Source of the DNA: Flavobacterium jejuense | GTDB lineage: Bacteria > Bacteroidota > Bacteroidia > Flavobacteriales > Flavobacteriaceae | Assembly (NCBI RefSeq): GCF_006491595.2 | Contig: NZ_VEVQ02000003.1 | Coordinates: forward strand, 1-64,000 | DNA length: 64,000 nucleotides | Reading direction: 5' to 3' | Translations under genes and position numbers: made by a program | The notes under the pieces: generated by a model | What the model was told of the DNA's origin: nothing | Seen by the model: the letters and a program-made list of their open reading frames with translations, nothing else | Database searches by the model: none | Shown: piece after piece, positions 47,285-56,296 of the stretch | How positions within the stretch are numbered: the first letter of the stretch is position 1 | Layout: each line of letters opens with the position of its first letter

Positions 47285-50200
47285 TTATACCACTTGTTCT
47301 TTTACCTCATATTTTTTTCTAGCTATTTGTCCTTTGTAATATCTGGACAATAATTCGTATACAACAAATTCATTCGTTCTATTTTTTCCCATAAATAATC
47401 GGTCTAAATTCATGTGTAATAAACTTGCTATTAAATTATTGATAGTTACTTGTAGTCTTTTCTCTTTTTCAATTTGCAGTAATTGCTTCACTAAAGGCTT
47501 ATTTGACAAACTTCTATTTTCTATTAATTCAATTATTGGATAATACTCTTCTTGCGCTTCACTACTTTTGTCTAAAAGCTGTTCCATCTGTTTTCTTAGA
47601 TTTCTATATTTAGTATTTAAGGAGACTTTTAACATTTGTTGTCCTCCATGTTCTTTAAAAAAAGAATCACTAAGAACATCAATAAGCTCATATTTTTGAT
47701 TTAAATCAAATCCAAAATCATCTAGAAAAGCATCTACTGATCTTATAGCCATTTGCCATCGAATAGTTCCACCGTTTTCTGTATCGAGTAAATCTAACAT
47801 TTCTACGACAAATTTACTATCGTTATAAAAAAACAGCTCAGCAAGTTCTATAGTATTATCACCATATCTATATAGTTCGCGTTTATAAGTTTCATTTTGA
47901 ATTTTAGAAATCCTATTTTCATTGATAAGTGGTTCTAATTCTGTATTAATATAGTGTAGAATATAACCATATTTTACTATATCTTTAATATGTAATCTAA
48001 ATCTTAAATGTGTCTCTGGGTCAGAATATCGAATAAAAAACCAATGATCTATTACTTTCTCCTCAATCAGTTTTTTAGTGATTTTTTTTATTTTTTCAGT
48101 CAATATATAATCAGCAGTTTTTGCTCCACTATATATTTTATAGTATAGCCATTCACTTCCTATAGAGAATTGCTGTTTAGTAATATTTTTTAACTGAAAA
48201 TCATTCTGGATTTGATGTCTTTCTTTTTGTTCATTTAAAACAATTGCGATACACTCATTGGTAAACATTTCATTATTGGTATCTTGCACTAATGCTTTTT
48301 TACTTGTGAATAAATATTCTTCAAGTATAACTTCGTTACTTTTCTTAATAATGTCTATGAAAGTATCAACTGCAATAGGGTTATTAGTATCAATTAATAA
48401 TTCATTATCACTTTGCACAATTAGGAAAAGATCTGGAAGTTCTATTTTATTTTTCAACTCGAAAAAATAGTGATGTTTTTCAACATTACTTTTCTTCTTA
48501 TTTTGTAATGGTGCTAAATCTTTTTGTTTTAATTGCCATTTTGCTGCACTTAGTATTGAATTTTGATATTCCACTCTTGGCAAAAAATCAAATTGATTCG
48601 CTAATATTCCCCAGTGAAAACCTACAAAAGATTTTGAGAAATATTGAGTTTGTAAATCACATAAAAAATGATAAACTGGTAAACTATTAAATCCGAAATT
48701 ATGCGCATTTCCTAAACGAGGAATAATTTCTTTTTGTAATCTTTTATCGAATAATATGATTTTATTATTTCTTATTTTAATAAAGAGGTCTTCCATTTTT
48801 ATTTGAAAATCATCTGCTACTGCACTTTTTGCTAAATAGGGAATTTCATATTTTCTAAAAGCTGATCTAGCCAAAATATTCCCTGTTCTACTTTCTGGTA
48901 AATGTACTATTTCAGCGAGAATTTTATTGGGAAACTGTTCTTGTTCAAATTTTGAGATTGTATTTACTATTTCGTTTACTGTTTCATTTCCTACTGCAAA
49001 TCTTCCTAATAAATTTATAGCACTACTTCCTCCTGCTCCACTTATATATATATTATTGGTTTCTGCATCCAATAACTTAAACATAGCTGAAAAAGAAGAT
49101 GGTAAATTATTTTCTGAAAAATCTATTAATGGAAAATCTTTTTCTGATATTTCAATACATTTTTTCTTTTCTTCTCTACTTTTTGTAAGTAAATGTAATA
49201 AACAAGATTGTAATGCGTTCCATTTCAATTCGCTTCCATAGTTTGCATTTGGAATATAAACATCTTCAATTAAATCATTAATTCCATGATTTCCTGTTTC
49301 CATATAACCAACACCTGTTTCTACATCAAGTGCCAACAATAAAGGAACTGTATCATCTTCAAACCTATTTAGAAAACGTTTTTTAAAACTTTCTAGTTTC
49401 TCATTAGTGTTTACTGGTGTAATTTTATTTAAAAATTGTAGTGTCTCTTTTAATTGTTCTTGCACTTTACTATCTATTTCTGATTGTACGGTTTGTTTGT
49501 ACAAATCGGTTTGGAATAAATTGGTTTCTGCCAAATCAGGTAAAATCGTTTTTAGTTGTTCATGAATTTGCCTATATGATTCCACTTCATTTAAAATAGT
49601 TACATCTATTTTCTTTATTGAATGATTTACTGAAATTAATGTATTCAATACTTGAAATAAATTAGCATCTTTATTTAACTCGTATATTTTTTGCAGTTTA
49701 TTTAATACAGAATTAAAATAGTCTGCTCCTGTAACAGTAGGCTCGAGTTCGTTTATTAAGATTTGAGAATCTATCAATTCCTGTATGAATTCTGATGCTT
49801 CTTCAATTGTAATTTCATCATCAACGAGTAAATTTATTAATTCAATAGTAGTCAAACCTTTACTTGATTGATTCAAAATATACTCTAAATATTCTGAATA
49901 ATCTACTTTACAAATTTTATGAAATCGTTTAGCATTACTATAATAATATTCAATATATCTATAATTCTCTCCTACTTGATAAATACTTGTATTAGGGAAA
50001 AATTTCAAATATCTCTTTACACTTTCTAATTTAGTTAATTCTTGTACTAATGAATTTAAGACATTCATATCTAATCTTGTACTACGAATTAGTGTTTCAT
50101 TTAAATCTGAATTTATTACAATTTGATTTTTATCTTTCCATTCTCCTATACTTAATCCTGCAAACAAGCCAAATGGTGTACAACGCTGACTAGCTCTAGA

Positions 50201-50395
50201 TTCGTATTTGTATAACGAAACGTTAAGTTTTTTTAGTCCTTTTTCAGTCTCAATCGGTTTAATAATATGTTTTTTATATTCATCATATAAAACAGGTGTT
50301 GATAAATATAATGCTTCAGAAAAAATAGCTTCATCTGTTTTGTTTCCAAATGACACTAATGGTGTTCTAACGATAAATTGTGGTAAAAACTTCAT
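47285..50395 (-). CDS. lanB: Class I lanthipeptide dehydratase LanB
   Basis: LanB glutamylates Ser/Thr of a precursor peptide with glutamyl-tRNA and then eliminates glutamate to give dehydroalanine/dehydrobutyrine. At 1036 aa it is the fused full-length form. The glutamylation domain opens with SRASQRCTPFGLFAGLSIGEW (in parts, SRASQRCTPFG and LFAGLSIGEW, about residues 67-86). The C-terminal elimination (SpaB_C) domain covers about residues 765-1030, with WLYYKIYSGAKTADYIL, HWFFIRYSDPETHLRFRL and ERELYRYG-like KRELYRYGDNTIELAE. It is the last gene of the precursor-lanC-lanB set, 6 bp after lanC. Confidence 0.93.
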   Translation of the reverse strand: MKFLPQFIVRTPLVSFGNKTDEAIFSEALYLSTPVLYDEYKKHIIKPIETEKGLKKLNVSLYKYESRASQRCTPFGLFAGLSIGEWKDKNQIVINSDLNETLIRSTRLDMNVLNSLVQELTKLESVKRYLKFFPNTSIYQVGENYRYIEYYYSNAKRFHKICKVDYSEYLEYILNQSSKGLTTIELINLLVDDEITIEEASEFIQELIDSQILINELEPTVTGADYFNSVLNKLQKIYELNKDANLFQVLNTLISVNHSIKKIDVTILNEVESYRQIHEQLKTILPDLAETNLFQTDLYKQTVQSEIDSKVQEQLKETLQFLNKITPVNTNEKLESFKKRFLNRFEDDTVPLLLALDVETGVGYMETGNHGINDLIEDVYIPNANYGSELKWNALQSCLLHLLTKSREEKKKCIEISEKDFPLIDFSENNLPSSFSAMFKLLDAETNNIYISGAGGSSAINLLGRFAVGNETVNEIVNTISKFEQEQFPNKILAEIVHLPESRTGNILARSAFRKYEIPYLAKSAVADDFQIKMEDLFIKIRNNKIILFDKRLQKEIIPRLGNAHNFGFNSLPVYHFLCDLQTQYFSKSFVGFHWGILANQFDFLPRVEYQNSILSAAKWQLKQKDLAPLQNKKKSNVEKHHYFFELKNKIELPDLFLIVQSDNELLIDTNNPIAVDTFIDIIKKSNEVILEEYLFTSKKALVQDTNNEMFTNECIAIVLNEQKERHQIQNDFQLKNITKQQFSIGSEWLYYKIYSGAKTADYILTEKIKKITKKLIEEKVIDHWFFIRYSDPETHLRFRLHIKDIVKYGYILHYINTELEPLINENRISKIQNETYKRELYRYGDNTIELAELFFYNDSKFVVEMLDLLDTENGGTIRWQMAIRSVDAFLDDFGFDLNQKYELIDVLSDSFFKEHGGQQMLKVSLNTKYRNLRKQMEQLLDKSSEAQEEYYPIIELIENRSLSNKPLVKQLLQIEKEKRLQVTINNLIASLLHMNLDRLFMGKNRTNEFVVYELLSRYYKGQIARKKYEVKEQVV

Positions 50396-50401
50396 AACTC
50401 C

Positions 50402-51580
50402 TTAACTTAATAATAAACATTTATCCCAATTCAAATCTTCTATATCCTCTGTTAGAAATCCTAACATGGCCAACCCAATTCCTGCAATTCCATCTAACAA
50501 ACTATAATCTAAAGTCCAACCCTTTATTCCGTGAAATGATTTAAAATTTTCTAAATTATTTTCATCTTCAAGTTTTACAAATGTTTGTTCTAACCAATAC
50601 CAACGTGCCTCATCAAAATCTTGAATTCCTGTTTCTTTATAAAACCTATTAAAAATATGAGCTAACCCTGAAGTCCCATGACAGAACGCTGCATCAACAA
50701 CTAAATTGTCTTTTAAATCTCTTCTTTTTGAAGCATGTAGCATGATTTGAATAGCTTCATTTTTCCATTCTTCATTATTAAATAACTTGCCAGCTTGCCA
50801 AAAAGCAAATGCTACACCAATATCTCCATAACACCAAGCCAATCTTGATTTATATTCAATTTCATGACCCACTTTTATAACACTTGGATAAAGTGAAAGA
50901 GTATGAGATGTTGATTCATAAGATTTAATTAATTTTAAAATATTGCCAACAATTTCTTTGCTTTCTGGAATATTTATCTGAGACAAAATGATTACAACTG
51001 AAGGTAATCCATGTGATAAACTCAAATTGATATCCGTATTATCGGCAACTCTTTTGTTCACTTCAAAGACACTCAACCAATTGTTATAATAACTTCCCCT
51101 TTCATTGGATTTTAACCCTTTCAAAAAATCTGTTGTTAAATCCATTACAAATTTTTCTCCTAACAGTTTTTTACAACTATTTGTTACAAATAATAATCCT
51201 AATGAACCATGTAAAAAGTCATAATTTGTTATTTGATTAAAGTTTTTACTATTCAAAGACAACAAATCCTGTATTTCTTTATTTATTGTTGGCAATAAAT
51301 CTTCAATTAATTCATTCTGTACCAAATAATTTAATAACCAAATGTTTCCTGAAATACCTTCGCTAAAAGTAATTTCTTTAGACTCTTGAAAGTGTTCTAA
51401 AAAATCAATTAGCTTATTTTCAAAAACATCATGACTCTTCTCTGCTACTCCTAATTTGGTAAACAAAAACTGAAACAACAAAAAACCTCCATGAGTATAA
51501 TATAAATTATACTCTACTTGATTTTGCAATTGCAATTTGCTTTCAATTAGTGAAACTGAATCTTTGACTTTTTGTAACAT
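50402..51580 (-). CDS. lanC: Lanthionine synthetase C-family cyclase LanC
   Basis: LanC joins Cys thiols to dehydrated residues to make (methyl)lanthionine rings. The zinc ligands are present: C250 in RLAWCYGDIG, C300 and H301 in AAFCHGTSGLAH. The repeated GxxG helices of the alpha-alpha toroid occur as FSEGISGNIWLL, DFLHGSLGLLF, SHGLPSV and LLDGIAGIGLAMLGFL. The 392-aa length is normal. The gene starts 103 bp after the precursor stop, behind a hairpin, and ends 6 bp before lanB. With LanB it gives a complete class I modification pair. Confidence 0.94.
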   Translation of the reverse strand: MLQKVKDSVSLIESKLQLQNQVEYNLYYTHGGFLLFQFLFTKLGVAEKSHDVFENKLIDFLEHFQESKEITFSEGISGNIWLLNYLVQNELIEDLLPTINKEIQDLLSLNSKNFNQITNYDFLHGSLGLLFVTNSCKKLLGEKFVMDLTTDFLKGLKSNERGSYYNNWLSVFEVNKRVADNTDINLSLSHGLPSVVIILSQINIPESKEIVGNILKLIKSYESTSHTLSLYPSVIKVGHEIEYKSRLAWCYGDIGVAFAFWQAGKLFNNEEWKNEAIQIMLHASKRRDLKDNLVVDAAFCHGTSGLAHIFNRFYKETGIQDFDEARWYWLEQTFVKLEDENNLENFKSFHGIKGWTLDYSLLDGIAGIGLAMLGFLTEDIEDLNWDKCLLLS

Positions 51581-51610
51581 AGTATTTTATTTAATAGAAG
51601 ATTAAAATAA

Positions 51611-51640
51611 AAGAGACTGACATAAATATCAGCCTCTCAT
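51611..51640 (-). terminator. Hairpin between lanthipeptide precursor and lanC
   Basis: On the minus strand GAGGCTGA pairs with TCAGTCTC (one G-T pair) around an eight-base loop and is followed by a T-rich run. It is a leaky terminator or processing hairpin, of the type that keeps precursor mRNA more abundant than lanC/lanB mRNA. Confidence 0.7.
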
Positions 51641-51683
51641 TATCTGATTTATTTTAACAAATCATTTAACTAAATAGTTCTTA

Positions 51684-51959
51684 CTATTTTTTTACAGCTG
51701 CTCCATTACCAACTGCAACAGTTGCATCTCCTCCAGAAGGACCAGCAACATTACCGCCACAATTCATTCCTTCACAATTACAAGTATTTCTTCCACTTGT
51801 ACCAACAGCCCATTCCATAGTTCCTCCTAAATTTTCAATATTTGATGGAATACCCAAAATAGGATAACCACCACTAATATTTTTCATTTGATCTTCTGTC
51901 AATTTTGCCACTGTCTCTTTGTTCAAGTTTAATTTTCCTGAGAATTTAAGTTTTTTCAT
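51684..51959 (-). CDS. lanA: Class I lanthipeptide precursor peptide
   Basis: The 91-aa peptide has a Bacteroidota-type lanthipeptide leader: FSGKLNLNKETVAKLTEDQM followed by a double-glycine end at G30-G31. The core is about 60 aa with three cysteines, C60, C62 and C67 (RNTCNCEGMNCGGN), preceded by T47, T54, S55 and T59 and followed by S75 and T80. This allows up to three thioether rings, though a Cys-x-Cys pair so close to T59 would make tight rings. The tail after C67 is rich in Gly, Ala and Val and ends in Lys-Lys. It lies directly upstream of lanC and lanB. The product is a probable antibacterial or signalling peptide; its target is unknown. Confidence 0.9.
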   Translation of the reverse strand: MKKLKFSGKLNLNKETVAKLTEDQMKNISGGYPILGIPSNIENLGGTMEWAVGTSGRNTCNCEGMNCGGNVAGPSGGDATVAVGNGAAVKK

Positions 51960-52356
51960 GATTAAAATTTTTTAAAATTAATATTGTTTATTTCATTACG
52001 TGAACTAATCGGATTATAAGGTTTACTCCCAAACATGTATGTGCACTTACATGTATTTTTATAATCGTTCTATTATTATATCAATAATAAAGACTAAATG
52101 TTACCTTATTTAGTCGAATAAAAGATTCATAATATCATTCAATATTAATAAGTGTAGCATTTAAAAAAACATTACCCGATTTTCTTCATTTTTTAACATT
52201 CCTATTTTAAAAACAGAAATAATCTAAGAAGGAATCTTTAAAATGGGTGATTTAACCCTAACTAAAAGCGTTTATCAACTATTTAAAAAAAATCAGAAGA
52301 GTTGTTTCTTTGTAATGAATAAAAAAAGTAATTTCATAAACTTAAAAACAAACAAT
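51960..52356. promoter_or_regulatory. Divergent control region of the lanthipeptide cluster
   Basis: This roughly 400-bp stretch separates the precursor gene from the plus-strand kinase/regulator genes. It holds the 22-bp palindrome at 52033-52054. The plus-strand side has a TTTCTTTG box around 52305-52312 that could be a -7 element for the 52357 gene. Two further in-frame ATG codons (52243 and 52318) exist upstream of the start chosen for that gene. Confidence 0.55.
52033..52054. promoter_or_regulatory. 22-bp palindromic operator upstream of the precursor gene
   Basis: The sequence runs ACATGTA-TGTGCACT-TACATGT and matches its reverse complement at 20 of 22 positions. It ends against a TTTG (minus strand), a possible -33 element of the precursor promoter, about 75 bp before the start codon. 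The adjacent NarL-type regulator is the natural candidate to bind it. Confidence 0.6.
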
Positions 52357-53103
52357 ATGATAACTGGAATTTTAATCGCTGTACTATTTGCCTTTGGAGT
52401 TTATATTTATAAATTCCCGCCAAGAAAAACAACTTCAACACCTTGTCCATGCTCAAACAAAATATGTATGGATTATCCTGATGATTCTATAAGTAAATTA
52501 TCTGTAGATTTAATTCATACTATGGTTAAAGGTTATAAAAAAAATCAATTAGATTTCATAAATACACATTCCCGCTTTGTTCCTAATGATGATGCACATT
52601 CTATTTGGTTTGATTTAGAAACTTTAAAAAAGTTTATTTATCATATTGAAAAAACTACACTTAATAAAGCAGCAACAGTAGAAGATTTAAAAAGCATGGA
52701 CATCACTAAAGAAAAATTAGGTATTAGAATCTATTATACTGCTTACCCTGAAAACAAAATTTGGAGCAGATTTAATGATTTAATGGCATTTCTTGAAGTT
52801 AAAGATGAAAAATTAAAAAAAGAAAGATTAGCATATGGGAATTTACATAGCCTAGTAATGGTTCCCACTTTAGATGCTAAAGGTAACGGAACAAATTCAG
52901 ACTTTAATCCTTTAGACCCTATTACTTATCCTAATGGTCTTTTTGATCGTCTAGGTTATACTTTTGATCCAAACAATCTTAACTCATTAAATAGAACGAT
53001 GGGCTTATCTGGTCTTACTTCCAATCAAAATTTAAGTACGGGTGCTCAAAATCACGGAAGCTTAATTCCTCCAGCAACCTCAAATGGTGTAGAAGGCTTT
53101 TAA
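52357..53103 (+). CDS. Membrane-anchored protein near lanthipeptide cluster
   Basis: I do not know this family. I chose the ATG at 52357, because it puts a single hydrophobic anchor at residues 2-20 (ITGILIAVLFAFGVYIY); starts at 52243 or 52318 would add 38 or 13 residues. After the anchor comes a Cys-rich linker (STPCPCSNKICMDYP) and a domain of about 150 residues (WFDLETLKKFIYHIEKTTL, GIRIYYTAYPE), then a Gly/Asn/Ser-rich tail. It starts a plus-strand set with the membrane protein 3 bp later. A sensor or signalling input to the kinase two genes on is one possibility. Confidence 0.7.
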   Translation: MITGILIAVLFAFGVYIYKFPPRKTTSTPCPCSNKICMDYPDDSISKLSVDLIHTMVKGYKKNQLDFINTHSRFVPNDDAHSIWFDLETLKKFIYHIEKTTLNKAATVEDLKSMDITKEKLGIRIYYTAYPENKIWSRFNDLMAFLEVKDEKLKKERLAYGNLHSLVMVPTLDAKGNGTNSDFNPLDPITYPNGLFDRLGYTFDPNNLNSLNRTMGLSGLTSNQNLSTGAQNHGSLIPPATSNGVEGF

Positions 53104-53106
53104 TAT

Positions 53107-53754
53107 ATGTATCAATATCAACCAGAAATAAGTACATTGCTACTATGGATTCAATTTTTGACAGCCATAATAGCAATTGTATATTATAAAAAAGTTAAAG
53201 AATCTTATTGGAAGTGGTTTATTCTCTATCTTATCTATGTATTTCTAATTGAAAAATTTGGTGATACATTTTTTAGACTTGTCCATTTAAAAAAAGAAAA
53301 ATATTTTGCTTTTATTGGAATCCCTATAGAATTCATTTTCTTTTATTGGTTATATGCAATGCAATCATTAAAAAACAAAAAAATATTTTATAGTTTTTCA
53401 TTTTTATACTTTTTATCTTTCATTCCAGTTGAATTATTTTTTGAAAAAATAAAAATCGTTTATTCTTTCAATTATACTATTGGTTCATTTTTACTAATGA
53501 TACTCGTTTTTTTAGAATTTAAGAAACAAATACAAAATGATGATATATTAGCATTCAAAAAGAATAAAATGTTTTATATTAATATTGGAATAATGTTATT
53601 TTATGTTGGAACATTACCTTTTTTTAGTTTGTACTATCTCTTATTGAAAGAACCTGATATATGGAATATCTATTACCTTTATTTTTTAATTTCTAATTGT
53701 ATTATGTATATATTATTCACAGCATCTTTTATATGGGGAAAACCGAAATCATAG
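53107..53754 (+). CDS. Multi-helix membrane protein
   Basis: This 215-aa protein has seven predicted membrane segments (opening LLLWIQFLTAIIAIVYYKK, then WFILYLIYVFLIEKFG, and so on), with large aromatic content. I know no family by name. It overlaps the histidine kinase gene by 22 bp and follows the anchored protein by 3 bp, so the four genes 52357-55149 form one operon. It may act as a membrane sensor for the kinase, whose own sensor is only one helix. Confidence 0.75.
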   Translation: MYQYQPEISTLLLWIQFLTAIIAIVYYKKVKESYWKWFILYLIYVFLIEKFGDTFFRLVHLKKEKYFAFIGIPIEFIFFYWLYAMQSLKNKKIFYSFSFLYFLSFIPVELFFEKIKIVYSFNYTIGSFLLMILVFLEFKKQIQNDDILAFKKNKMFYINIGIMLFYVGTLPFFSLYYLLLKEPDIWNIYYLYFLISNCIMYILFTASFIWGKPKS

Positions 53755-54509
53755 TTACTATCATTCTTTTTAATTTATTCTTTATCTTATTTCTTATAGG
53801 TATAGTCGTTTTTATCAAACAATATAAATTAAAAAAGAAAGAGCACGAAGATAAGTTACAGCATCAACAAAGGGAACACCAACAAGAATTACTAACGACA
53901 CAGTTAGAAATTCAAACTCAGACGATGCAATATATAGGAAGGGAAATTCATGATAATATTGGTCAGAAATTAACTTTGGCTAGTTTGTACACCCAACAAT
54001 TAGCTTATGAAAACAAAGCTCCTCATATTAACGAGAGTATTGAAAATATTAGTACTATAATTAATGACTCATTAAGTGAATTAAGACAATTATCTAAATC
54101 CTTAACCGATGACAGTATTGAACAAAATCCAATTGCTGAATTACTAGAAGAAGAATGTAAAAAGATTAATGAACTAAAGAAATGTAGCGTTCATTTTTTA
54201 TATATTCCAAAAATTGAACTGCAAAGTTATCAAATCAAAAGCATCTTATTAAGGATTACACAAGAGTTTTTACAGAATAGTATTAAACATTCTAACTGCA
54301 AAAACATTAAAGTTACATTTAAAAAAAATAACGGTTTTATAGAGTTGCAATTGGAAGATGATGGAAAAGGTTTCGATACTATTAAAATGCAGTCTAATGG
54401 AATAGGGTTGCTTAATATGAAAAAAAGAGCTGAAATAATTGGAGGAACATATGTTTTTGAAAGTTCAATTGATAAAGGCACAAAACTAACTATAAAAATA
54501 CCTCATTAA
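53733..54509 (+). CDS. Sensor histidine kinase, HisKA_3 (NarX/DesK-like)
   Basis: I set the start at the ATG at 53733, which overlaps the upstream gene by 22 bp; a TTG at 53697 would overlap more. A membrane helix covers residues 6-28, followed by a charged coiled coil and HisKA_3 with His73 in REIHDNIGQKLTLASLY. The ATPase has ITQEFLQNSIKHSNC (N box), DDGKGFD and GIGLLNMKKRAE. There is no separate sensor domain. It is paired with the NarL-type regulator that starts 1 bp after its stop. The partner operon is on the other strand. Confidence 0.92.
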   Translation: MGKTEIIVTIILFNLFFILFLIGIVVFIKQYKLKKKEHEDKLQHQQREHQQELLTTQLEIQTQTMQYIGREIHDNIGQKLTLASLYTQQLAYENKAPHINESIENISTIINDSLSELRQLSKSLTDDSIEQNPIAELLEEECKKINELKKCSVHFLYIPKIELQSYQIKSILLRITQEFLQNSIKHSNCKNIKVTFKKNNGFIELQLEDDGKGFDTIKMQSNGIGLLNMKKRAEIIGGTYVFESSIDKGTKLTIKIPH

Positions 54510-54510
54510 A

Positions 54511-55149
54511 ATGAAAAAAACGATAGTTGTAGTTGATGATCATCTTTTAATCGCAAATGCATTGAGTAGCATCATATCAAATTTTGAAGCGTTTGAAGTG
54601 TTATATGTTTGCGAAAATGGATTAGAATTACAAAATAAAATCAATCAACATCCAATACCTGATATTGTTCTACTAGATATTAGTATGCCAATAATGGATG
54701 GTTTTGAAACGGCCAATTGGTTAAAAAAAGATTATCCAAATACTCTAATTATGGCTTTGAGCATGCAAGATGACGAACAAAGTTTAATTAAAATGATAAA
54801 AAATGGTGCTAAAGGATATATGCTAAAAAATGCACATCCAAAAGAACTAGAAGAAGCCTTACAAAAAATTTTAAAAAACGGACAATATTTTCAAGAATGG
54901 GCTACTAGTAAAGTCCTTTCTACCTTACATTACAACCACAATAATTCAAACGAAATAAAAATCTCAGATAGAGAAAAAGAATTTCTTAAATATACTGTTA
55001 CTGAAATGACCTATAAGGAAATCTCGGAAAAAATGTTTTGCAGTCCTAGAACCGTTGAAAATTATAGGGATAGCCTTTTTGAAAAATTAGAATTAAAAAC
55101 TAGAGTTGGTCTTGCTGTATATGCTATAAAAAATGGATATGAAGAGTAG
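54511..55149 (+). CDS. NarL/LuxR-family response regulator
   Basis: The receiver domain covers residues 1-120, with Asp56 (IVLLDISMP) as phosphate acceptor and the acidic pair D9-D10. The C-terminal LuxR-type helix-turn-helix covers about 147-207: ISDREKEFLKYTVTEMTYKEI and SPRTVENYRDSLFEKL. It starts 1 bp after the kinase stop. Its likely target is the lanthipeptide promoter, with the palindrome at 52033-52054 as a candidate site. This link is inference from place. The 212-aa length is normal. Confidence 0.93.
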   Translation: MKKTIVVVDDHLLIANALSSIISNFEAFEVLYVCENGLELQNKINQHPIPDIVLLDISMPIMDGFETANWLKKDYPNTLIMALSMQDDEQSLIKMIKNGAKGYMLKNAHPKELEEALQKILKNGQYFQEWATSKVLSTLHYNHNNSNEIKISDREKEFLKYTVTEMTYKEISEKMFCSPRTVENYRDSLFEKLELKTRVGLAVYAIKNGYEE

Positions 55150-55387: not shown

Positions 55388-56296
55388 TTATTTATCTGAA
55401 AGTAAAATGGGTACATTTCCTTTCCCGTTCATTAGTATTACTTTTGAATTAGTTGATTTAGCTAATTCTAATTGTGCTTTGATGGACTCATATTGTAATT
55501 GTTTATCAGTTAAGCCAGAAGAGATAATTTTTTGATAATCTGCAATTCCTTGAGCTTCCACTCTTTTACGTTCTGCCTCTTGTTTTTCTTTTTGCAAAAC
55601 AAACTGCATTTTTTGAGCTTCTTGTTCGGCATTAATTTTTGATTCGATAGTCGTTTTAACAGAAGCAGGTAAGTTAATATTCCTGATTAATAAATCCTCT
55701 AAAATAATACCTCTTTTCTTAAAGTCATTTTCAATAGATTTATAAATTTTATCTTGAAATTCATCTCTTTTTGAAGAATATAATGCCACTGCATCATAAA
55801 AAACAGCGTTGTCTCTAATTCTTGTTCTTGTAACTGGTCTAACAATTTTATCAGAATAAGTTACTCCTAATTTTTTAAAAATCACTGGTGCTTCTACTGG
55901 ATCAACCCTGTAAAGTACGGTTAAATCTATCACTACTTCTAAACCATCTGCAGAAAGTACTCTTATAGCATCGTCTCCTTGTTTTGCTCCTTCTTCATTT
56001 AGAGCAGACATAGTATAGTTTTGCGTTTGAATATCAAAAGGAGTTACCTCTATCATTGGATTTACAATATGTAAACCACTTTCCAAGATAGTGGGTTTTA
56101 CCTCTCCAAATAACGATTTAACACCAACAGTTCCTGCTTCTATTTGTACAAAAAGTGAAGATAAAACACCTATTATAATTATAAATAAACCAATAAACTT
56201 TAAAGGATTAACCAATTTATTAAAAGCTCCATTTTGAGATTTAATAACAAGGCTTATTACCATTAATATGATTCCAAATATTGCTGCTACTATCAT
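55388..56296 (-). CDS. Prohibitin-family (SPFH) membrane protein
   Basis: This 302-aa protein has two N-terminal membrane segments (about 3-16 and 33-52), then an SPFH/prohibitin domain: VEAGTVGVKSLFGEVKPTILESGLH is the family opening and SVKTTIESKINAEQEAQKMQFVLQKEKQEAERKRVEA the coiled coil (cited as ESKINAEQEAQKMQF and KQEAERKRVEA). Such proteins form large rings in the membrane that hold proteases or organise lipid domains. The start codon overlaps the MATE stop codon by 4 bp (ATGA), so the two are coupled. Confidence 0.9.
   Translation of the reverse strand: MIVAAIFGIILMVISLVIKSQNGAFNKLVNPLKFIGLFIIIIGVLSSLFVQIEAGTVGVKSLFGEVKPTILESGLHIVNPMIEVTPFDIQTQNYTMSALNEEGAKQGDDAIRVLSADGLEVVIDLTVLYRVDPVEAPVIFKKLGVTYSDKIVRPVTRTRIRDNAVFYDAVALYSSKRDEFQDKIYKSIENDFKKRGIILEDLLIRNINLPASVKTTIESKINAEQEAQKMQFVLQKEKQEAERKRVEAQGIADYQKIISSGLTDKQLQYESIKAQLELAKSTNSKVILMNGKGNVPILLSDK

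What the first reader, a model, noticed from the sequence alone, without database searches (positions are those of the whole stretch)
47285..55149. Class I lanthipeptide cluster with adjacent two-component system
Precursor, LanC and a full-length LanB are complete and intact, in a Bacteroidota genome, where few class I products are known. A kinase, a NarL-type regulator and two membrane proteins of unknown type are divergent from them. The whole set looks like a regulated system of production and perhaps self-sensing of the peptide.
Basis: partly seen in the sequence, partly recalled or inferred. Interest (0 to 1): 0.85.

Follow-up and report, generated by a model that had tools for sequence, protein, structure and literature searches.

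The report
Lanthipeptide genes beside unrelated sensor module
Three genes predicted to make a ring-bearing peptide sit back to back with a four-gene sensing unit, but related units lie without such peptide genes in 90 of 92 loci compared in Bacteroidota, so the two are likely neighbours by insertion rather than one self-sensing circuit.

Summary
The genes are real and intact: a leader-bearing lanthipeptide precursor, LanC and full-length LanB on one strand, and four genes on the other. The chemistry is predicted, and class I clusters with this leader type are not rare in Bacteroidota (PMC7268733). The proposed link is not supported. The four divergent genes (a likely exported protein 'P4', a predicted seven-helix membrane protein 'P5', a kinase and a NarL-type regulator) form a conserved module; P4 and P5 match no Pfam family. 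It is complete in 79 of 80 database loci, none with LanB or LanC found nearby. In Flavobacterium sp. NRK F7 it stands at the same site, with meaB 143 bp from P4 and lanBCA absent. One other genome (G447, apparently F. sediminilitoris) keeps the whole arrangement, with a conserved 22-bp dyad before lanA that is unlike the dyad before P4. So shared control is possible but not shown. The more interesting object is the module: P4 and the first half of P5 vary far more than kinase and regulator, and one strain pair shows a sharp recombination mosaic inside P5. This resembles the comQXPA diversity pattern and makes a cell-cell signalling role worth testing.

The parts
51684..51959 (-). LanA: 91-aa precursor, L1a-type leader ending in GG (residues 1-31), core with three Cys (C60, C62, C67) invariant in 8 of 8 aligned precursors; hydroxyl residues kept at positions 47 (T or S), 54 (T) and 59 (T)
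   Evidence: NF038153 46.7 bits against cut-off 22; alignment of 8 precursors; 10 matches besides itself, 3 of which share mainly the leader
50402..51580 (-). LanC: 392-aa cyclase
   Evidence: PF05147 128 bits; WCYG and CHG motifs align with NisC 2g02 and with 8byk
47285..50395 (-). LanB: full-length 1036-aa dehydratase (glutamylation and elimination domains in one protein)
   Evidence: PF04738 432 bits and PF14028 220 bits; aligns with NisB 6m7y/4wd9 over 22-1020
51611..51638 (-). Hairpin with T-run between lanA and lanC; likely partial terminator that sets the precursor above the enzymes (inferred)
   Evidence: terminator-like site, 1 found against 1.2 expected by chance; in G447 two bases differ, both in the stem and both keeping the pair, G-U to A-U
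52033..52054 (.). 22-bp dyad upstream of lanA (ACATGTATGTGCACTTACATGT), likely operator of lanA (inferred)
   Evidence: inverted repeat I5; conserved in G447; only place in own genome at up to 3 mismatches, while the pattern read backwards, the tool's control, also matches once
52357..53103 (+). 'P4': 248-aa protein, one predicted N-terminal helix, one folded domain, variable linker and near-invariant tail NHGxLxPP; start corrected from 52243
   Evidence: 199 proteins at E <= 0.001, itself included; alignments A1, A3; model pLDDT 80.5
53107..53754 (+). 'P5': 215-aa membrane protein, seven long helices predicted
   Evidence: model pLDDT 90.4, pTM 0.87; no Pfam match in 58 members better than E 0.014
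53733..54509 (+). Histidine kinase (HisKA_3 + HATPase_c), start corrected from TTG 53697 to ATG 53733
   Evidence: G447 homologue of 260 aa begins at the equivalent Met; codon checked
54511..55149 (+). NarL/LuxR-type response regulator
   Evidence: Response_reg 80.2 bits, GerE 53.6 bits
52245..52258 (.). Dyad GGGTGATTTAACCC about 100 bp upstream of P4, likely operator of the module's own regulator (inferred)
   Evidence: similar dyads at a similar place, spelled otherwise in other genera, in lan-less loci
52302..52315 (+). Conserved element TTGTTTCTTTGTAA upstream of P4 (promoter role inferred)
   Evidence: identical in the window, L014, L015, L016 and L017, close in L020, L027 and G447

Best explanation
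The interval holds two separable units that share one intergenic region: a lanBCA trio predicted to make a class I lanthipeptide, and a four-gene sensory module (P4-P5-kinase-regulator) that likely works without it. In the trio, LanB is predicted to glutamylate and eliminate conserved Ser/Thr of the LanA core, and LanC to close up to three thioether rings on C60, C62 and C67. The GG leader would then be cut and the peptide exported by one of the C39-type transporters encoded elsewhere in the genome, since no C39 gene was found on this contig. In the module, P4 is likely an exported partner held at the membrane. P5 would be the seven-helix receptor, passing a signal to the membrane-bound kinase, and the kinase to the NarL-type regulator. 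The regulator likely controls its own operon through the dyad about 100 bp before P4. Shown here: gene content, occurrence of the module without lan genes, the empty site, the two different dyads, and the variability of P4 and of the first half of P5. Inferred: all biochemistry, the topology, the operators and the direction of the change (gain of the trio rather than its loss).
For: Trio. Module on its own: 79 of 80 loci with all four genes in order (L046 ends at its contig edge), 0 of 80 with a LanB or LanC profile hit. The control loci were largely training sequences, so they show only that the search ran; G447, not in the training set, was found by both profiles. All 25 genus genomes with a strong P4 match (E <= 1e-30) are thus covered: 2 with the trio, 23 without. 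Empty site: L017/L144, meaB 143 bp from P4, mostly the same outer flanks as the window. Other content in the same slot: L014, L015, L016, L020, L027. Dyads. Transporters elsewhere: 9 C39 matches in own genome, 4 of them strong, none on the window's contig; neighbourhoods read.
Against: Both genomes with this trio (own and G447) have it at this same place, divergent from the module, and LanB/LanC (87/83% identical) are kept better than P4/P5 (53/52%), so a working bond in this small group is not excluded. Trees of MeaB, HK, RR, P5 and P4 do not resolve whether the two lan-bearing genomes are sisters, so loss in the others is as open as gain. The 80-locus sample was seeded by P4 motifs, 10 of the 80 have less than 5 kb upstream of P4, and the added stretches also include cut contigs, so lan genes could be missed in a few. 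The lanA dyad is of the general kind bound by LuxR/NarL-type proteins (recalled), so the regulator could bind it. The G447 P4-side dyad has a mismatch.
Confidence: 0.72

Rival explanations
1. One circuit: the module senses the lanthipeptide (or the state that calls for it) and its regulator switches lanA, like the kinase-regulator pairs of Gram-positive lantibiotic clusters (recalled).
For: Divergent layout over a shared 397-bp region; the layout recurs in G447; a 22-bp dyad lies before lanA and is conserved; its likeness to LuxR-type boxes is recalled.
Against: Module without LanB/LanC in 90 of 92 distinct loci; the dyad before P4 in many genera is not the dyad before lanA; empty site in Flavobacterium sp. 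NRK F7; two lan loci elsewhere that share part of the sequence before lanA (G103, G121) lie beside other kinase and regulator genes.
Confidence: 0.2
2. The trio is ancestral at this site and was lost from the related lan-less species; the module then kept or lost a former role in its control.
For: The own MeaB is closest to that of G447 among nine (88%; G447's is equally close to G232's); lan genes are well conserved between own and G447.
Against: The slot holds different genes in different relatives, which fits repeated insertion better than simple loss; trees are unresolved.
Confidence: 0.25
3. The module is an envelope or nutrient sensor: P4 is a surface lipoprotein-like binding protein for a glycan or metabolite, and its variability reflects changing food rather than cell-cell signalling.
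For: Several P4 homologues begin with a lipoprotein-like signal (alignment; reading of the signal is mine); such sensors are usual in Bacteroidota (recalled).
Against: No neighbour shared across most genera that would supply such a function was found in 80 loci; the widest plausible one, an ABC ATPase gene (my reading), is in 18 loci, 15 of them Pedobacter. P4 has no clear match among solved folds, so no ligand class is suggested.
Confidence: 0.45

Closest known systems
Class I lanthipeptide clusters of Bacteroidota (Chryseobacterium ChmABC, Runella RuiABC; PMC9993889, passages read)
   Same: LanA, LanB and LanC; Bacteroidota origin
   Different: LanA core here (MxWxVGT..RNTCNCEGxxC) was found only in its own small family; its product has not been made here
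Pinensin clusters (named in PMC7268733, passages read)
   Same: Bacteroidota class I lanthipeptide
   Different: Pinensin dehydratase is split; LanB here is one full-length protein
comQXPA quorum sensing of Bacillus (PMC4008528, passages read)
   Same: HisKA_3 kinase plus, by recall, a LuxR/NarL-type regulator; diversity order regulator < kinase < further protein < exported protein; the N-terminal membrane part of the sensor is the variable one
   Different: No ComQ-like gene recurs beside the module; the membrane receptor is a separate 7-helix protein; P4 is mostly a 160-250-aa protein with an invariant tail, not a short peptide
NisRK-type lantibiotic regulation (recalled)
   Same: Kinase and regulator genes beside a lan cluster
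   Different: Here the pair belongs to a module that also occurs without lan genes

Membership tests
Class I lanthipeptide biosynthetic cluster | LanB with glutamylation and elimination domains | tested here: met
   PF04738 and PF14028 over cut-off; TPFGLF and RYxDPxxHxRxR segments align with NisB
Class I lanthipeptide biosynthetic cluster | LanC cyclase with its metal-site motifs | tested here: met
   WCYG and CHG align with NisC; their role as zinc ligands is recalled
Class I lanthipeptide biosynthetic cluster | Precursor with recognised leader and a Ser/Thr/Cys core | tested here: met
   NF038153 over cut-off; three Cys and three hydroxyl positions kept
Class I lanthipeptide biosynthetic cluster | Dehydration and thioether rings in the product | not testable with these tools
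   needs mass spectrometry
Class I lanthipeptide biosynthetic cluster | C39-type transporter or protease in the cluster (usual with GG leaders, not defining) | tested here: not met
   no C39 match on the window's contig; nine elsewhere in the genome. Other transporter families were not searched by profile
Lan cluster with its own regulatory two-component system | Kinase/regulator pair found with the lan genes, not without them | tested here: not met
   90 of 92 distinct module loci have no LanB/LanC hit
Lan cluster with its own regulatory two-component system | Regulator acts on the lanA promoter | not testable with these tools
   needs binding or transcript data; the two dyads differ in sequence
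comQXPA-type pherotype system | HisKA_3 kinase and LuxR/NarL-type regulator | tested here: met
comQXPA-type pherotype system | Exported protein and sensor part more variable than kinase core and regulator | tested here: met
   at 80-85% RR identity the medians are P4 47, P5 63, HK 72 (142 pairs); that P4 is exported is inferred
comQXPA-type pherotype system | ComQ prenyltransferase and ComX peptide | tested here: not met
   no extra gene recurs across most of 80 loci (ORFs of 100 aa or more); P4 is not a short peptide
7TMR-DISM receptors (recalled) | Pfam-recognised 7TM receptor domain | tested here: inconclusive
   no such match in 58 P5 members; a bundle of seven helices is predicted

The most novel reading that the evidence does not exclude
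P4-P5-kinase-regulator is an undescribed cell-cell recognition system of Bacteroidota. An exported P4 protein with an invariant NHGxLxPP tail would act on a bacterial seven-helix receptor split from its kinase, with allelic exchange of P4 and of the receptor's first half creating signalling types as comQXPA does in Bacillus. Gene sets such as this lanBCA trio would be inserted next to it and may come under its control.
Probability: 0.2. Interest if true: 0.85.

Novelty: new variant of a known kind. Interest (0 to 1): 0.48.

Why it matters
It corrects a tempting but likely wrong inference (adjacent two-component system = lantibiotic regulator) and gives a natural experiment, the same site with and without lan genes, to test it. 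More widely, it brings out a conserved Bacteroidota sensory module with two protein families that match nothing in Pfam, a predicted seven-helix receptor separate from its kinase, and a variability pattern like that of a known pherotype system. If it is a signalling system, a large phylum would gain a testable candidate for protein- or peptide-based recognition.

Tried and rejected

Pfam scans gave only scattered weak hits, mostly in one or two members each: best E 0.014 among 58 P5 members; among 73 P4 members one at 1.1e-4 (DUF677) and the rest of those shown above 0.002. PADLOC gave none for six proteins. Shared neighbours of the module: none across most genera. Mosaic structure: by a strict threshold only 1 of 335 pairs (RR identity >= 80%) is a clean mosaic (L014/L015); the replaced P4 of L016 is a weaker second case. 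So frequent exchange is not claimed. P4 and first-half P5 alleles are not strictly coupled (L014/L015: P4 96%, P5 first half 40%), which speaks against a simple ligand-receptor pair. Weak P4-domain matches are wider than the module: 92 of 398 genus genomes have a match at E <= 1e-5, most of them partial and some with stops; only the 25 strong ones were followed. In 150 relatives 13 matched P4, own included.

Literature: searches for class I lanthipeptide + Flavobacterium + two-component, three-component system terms, and quorum sensing/pherotype terms with Bacteroidetes listed no paper that I recognised as describing this module; only listings were seen, except passages of PMC4008528. Searches gave listings, from which passages of PMC9993889, PMC7268733 and PMC10734526 were read.
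Full report
What is there. On the minus strand lie LanB (47285-50395), LanC (50402-51580) and a 91-aa precursor (51684-51959); on the plus strand lie four genes up to 55149. LanB holds both dehydratase domains and LanC its family domain. The precursor matches the class I leader model NF038153 above its cut-off. LanB aligns with NisB over nearly its whole length, including the TPFGLF and RYxDPxxHxRxR segments. LanC aligns with NisC at WCYG and CHG. Eleven proteins, the window's own included, match the precursor; in the eight that share the core, C60, C62, C67, T54 and T59 are invariant and position 47 is T or S, which fits three rings. Ring pattern and chemistry are predicted only.

How common such a trio is. 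In 299 genomes of the genus, 30 have a LanC-like match at E <= 1e-10, own genome included, and the best outside it in that sample is 33% identical. In 398 genus genomes the precursor is matched in 6; only own and G447 match well into the core, the other four in the leader. PMC7268733 (passages) reports nearly a quarter of class I LanCs in Bacteroidetes, leaders of type LxLxKx5L that often end in GG, and a C39 protease often encoded in such clusters. Here no C39 match lies on the window's contig; nine lie elsewhere, four of them strong, and three of these four are in long transporter-like proteins beside other small peptide-like genes. Export would thus have to work in trans. The own genome has two more LanB-type loci. 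The trio is a new member of a known kind.

The four divergent genes are a module of their own. The first, here called P4, is matched by 199 proteins, itself included, none of the 120 listed with a Pfam domain. Most aligned homologues start at or near the equivalent of 52357; the 52243 start would run through a conserved upstream stretch. A search of named genomes with a P4 alignment gave 80 loci from Flavobacterium, Aquimarina, Tenacibaculum, Olleya, Kordia, Dokdonia, Chryseobacterium, Pedobacter and others. In 79 of 80 P4, P5, kinase and regulator follow in this order; the 80th ends at its contig edge. None of the 80 has LanB or LanC by BLAST with the window's proteins or by profiles built from 30 LanCs and 3 LanBs. 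The control loci were largely those used for training; the profiles also found LanB and LanC of G447, which they had not been trained on. Ten of the 80 have under 5 kb upstream of P4, the other 70 at least 8.9 kb. One Kordia locus has GG-type small ORFs 6-10 kb from P4. That makes 90 distinct loci without and 2 with (own, G447). All 25 genus genomes with a strong P4 match are covered by these.

The site with and without lan genes. In Flavobacterium sp. NRK F7 the order of the flanks is that of the window (by my reading a FAD-type oxidase, a permease and meaB on one side, a 75-aa ORF and a MATE transporter on the other; the gene at 55388-56296 is missing there), and meaB ends 143 bp before P4. 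In other relatives the same slot holds a P4-like lipoprotein gene, unrelated genes, or a second P4-like module. In G447, whose contig length equals that of F. sediminilitoris, the full arrangement recurs: LanB 87%, LanC 83%, LanA 69%, P4 53%, P5 52%, kinase 75%, regulator 80%, MeaB 89% identical. Trees of five genes leave open whether own and G447 are sisters, so gain and loss cannot be told apart.

Control regions. Between lanA and P4 (397 bp) two different dyads stand. A 22-bp dyad at 52033-52054, 74-95 bp before lanA, is conserved in G447 and is the only place in the own genome at up to 3 mismatches; the pattern read backwards, the tool's control, also matches once. A dyad at 52245-52258, about 100 bp before P4, has counterparts in lan-less loci. 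Elsewhere similar dyads at a similar place are spelled otherwise on both arms: GGGTCATTTAACCC, CCGTTGTTTAACGG, CCGTAAAATCACGG, GGGGAAAACCCC. Over 80 upstream regions (78 of the 80 loci, own and G447) the best dyad scores 7.9 on average against 3.9 in shuffles and beats the shuffled mean in 71. Nine, G447 included, have none by the strict rule, and not every best dyad is of the types named. This is what an operator read by the module's own regulator could look like; I saw no such dyad at lanA. Part of the sequence before lanA (GGAGnAAA..TTAnA, CCACGTnA) is shared with two other lan loci, G103 and G121 (in G121 only LanA and LanC were seen), which have other kinase and regulator genes beside them. 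A hairpin between lanA and lanC keeps its pairs in G447 through two G-U to A-U changes.

What the module may be. P4 is predicted as one N-terminal helix, one folded domain and a low-confidence tail region in which N232, H233, G234, P238 and P239 are invariant in 73 sequences. P5 is predicted with high confidence as seven long helices. Neither has a clear match among solved folds. Variation is uneven: where regulators are 80-85% identical, medians are 47% for P4, 63% for P5 and 72% for the kinase (142 pairs). Between L014 and L015, most of P4 is 96-100% identical in DNA, the first half of P5 falls to 44-65%, then identity returns to 96-100% into the kinase gene before settling at 72-93%: a recombination mosaic. 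By a strict rule it is the only one in 335 pairs. The order of diversity matches that reported for comQXPA (ComA most conserved, then ComP, ComQ, ComX; PMC4008528, passages). Against a simple ligand-receptor pair, P4 and first-half P5 alleles are not strictly coupled.

Verdict. The genes were read correctly; the lanthipeptide call is sound and ordinary; the proposed circuit is not supported by comparison, though it is not excluded in the two lan-bearing genomes. The unnamed sensory module is the part worth following.

Noticed in passing
own genome G000:C17:8806-13370 (locus L137): A second lan locus: LanC, LanB N-domain protein and separate C-domain-like protein (split dehydratase), with a divergent 72-aa, Cys-rich precursor-like ORF with a GG site.
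   Followed up: partly
own genome G000:C7:33485-36670 (locus L138, 6486-9671): A third, split LanB pair with no LanC seen among the ORFs nearby; small ORFs with GG sites lie some kb away.
   Followed up: no
own genome C8, C13, C18 (loci L139, L141, L140): C39 peptidase-type transporter genes beside other small peptide-like ORFs, one with a radical-SAM-like protein (my reading); candidates for export of this peptide in trans.
   Followed up: partly
L015 and L016, between meaB and P4: Three genes unrelated to lan fill the slot that holds lanBCA in the window, so the slot takes different content.
   Followed up: partly
L014:9258-9881, L192:8691, L020:2906-5588: P4-like paralogues just upstream of P4, and in L020 a whole second P4-like/P5/kinase/regulator module.
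   Followed up: partly
L057:283-3823 (Kordia): Five small ORFs with leader-like sequence and GG, some Cys-containing, 6-10 kb from a module.
   Followed up: no
G447:C1:2805376 (L157) and G232:C1:3581637-3587746 (L159): Another L1a-leader lan cluster with a luciferase-like monooxygenase gene (my reading of its sequence) between LanC and LanB; two precursors in G232.
   Followed up: no
window 51684-51959: The protein database lists PF28317 for this precursor and most relatives, a model that the Pfam scan did not return.
   Followed up: no
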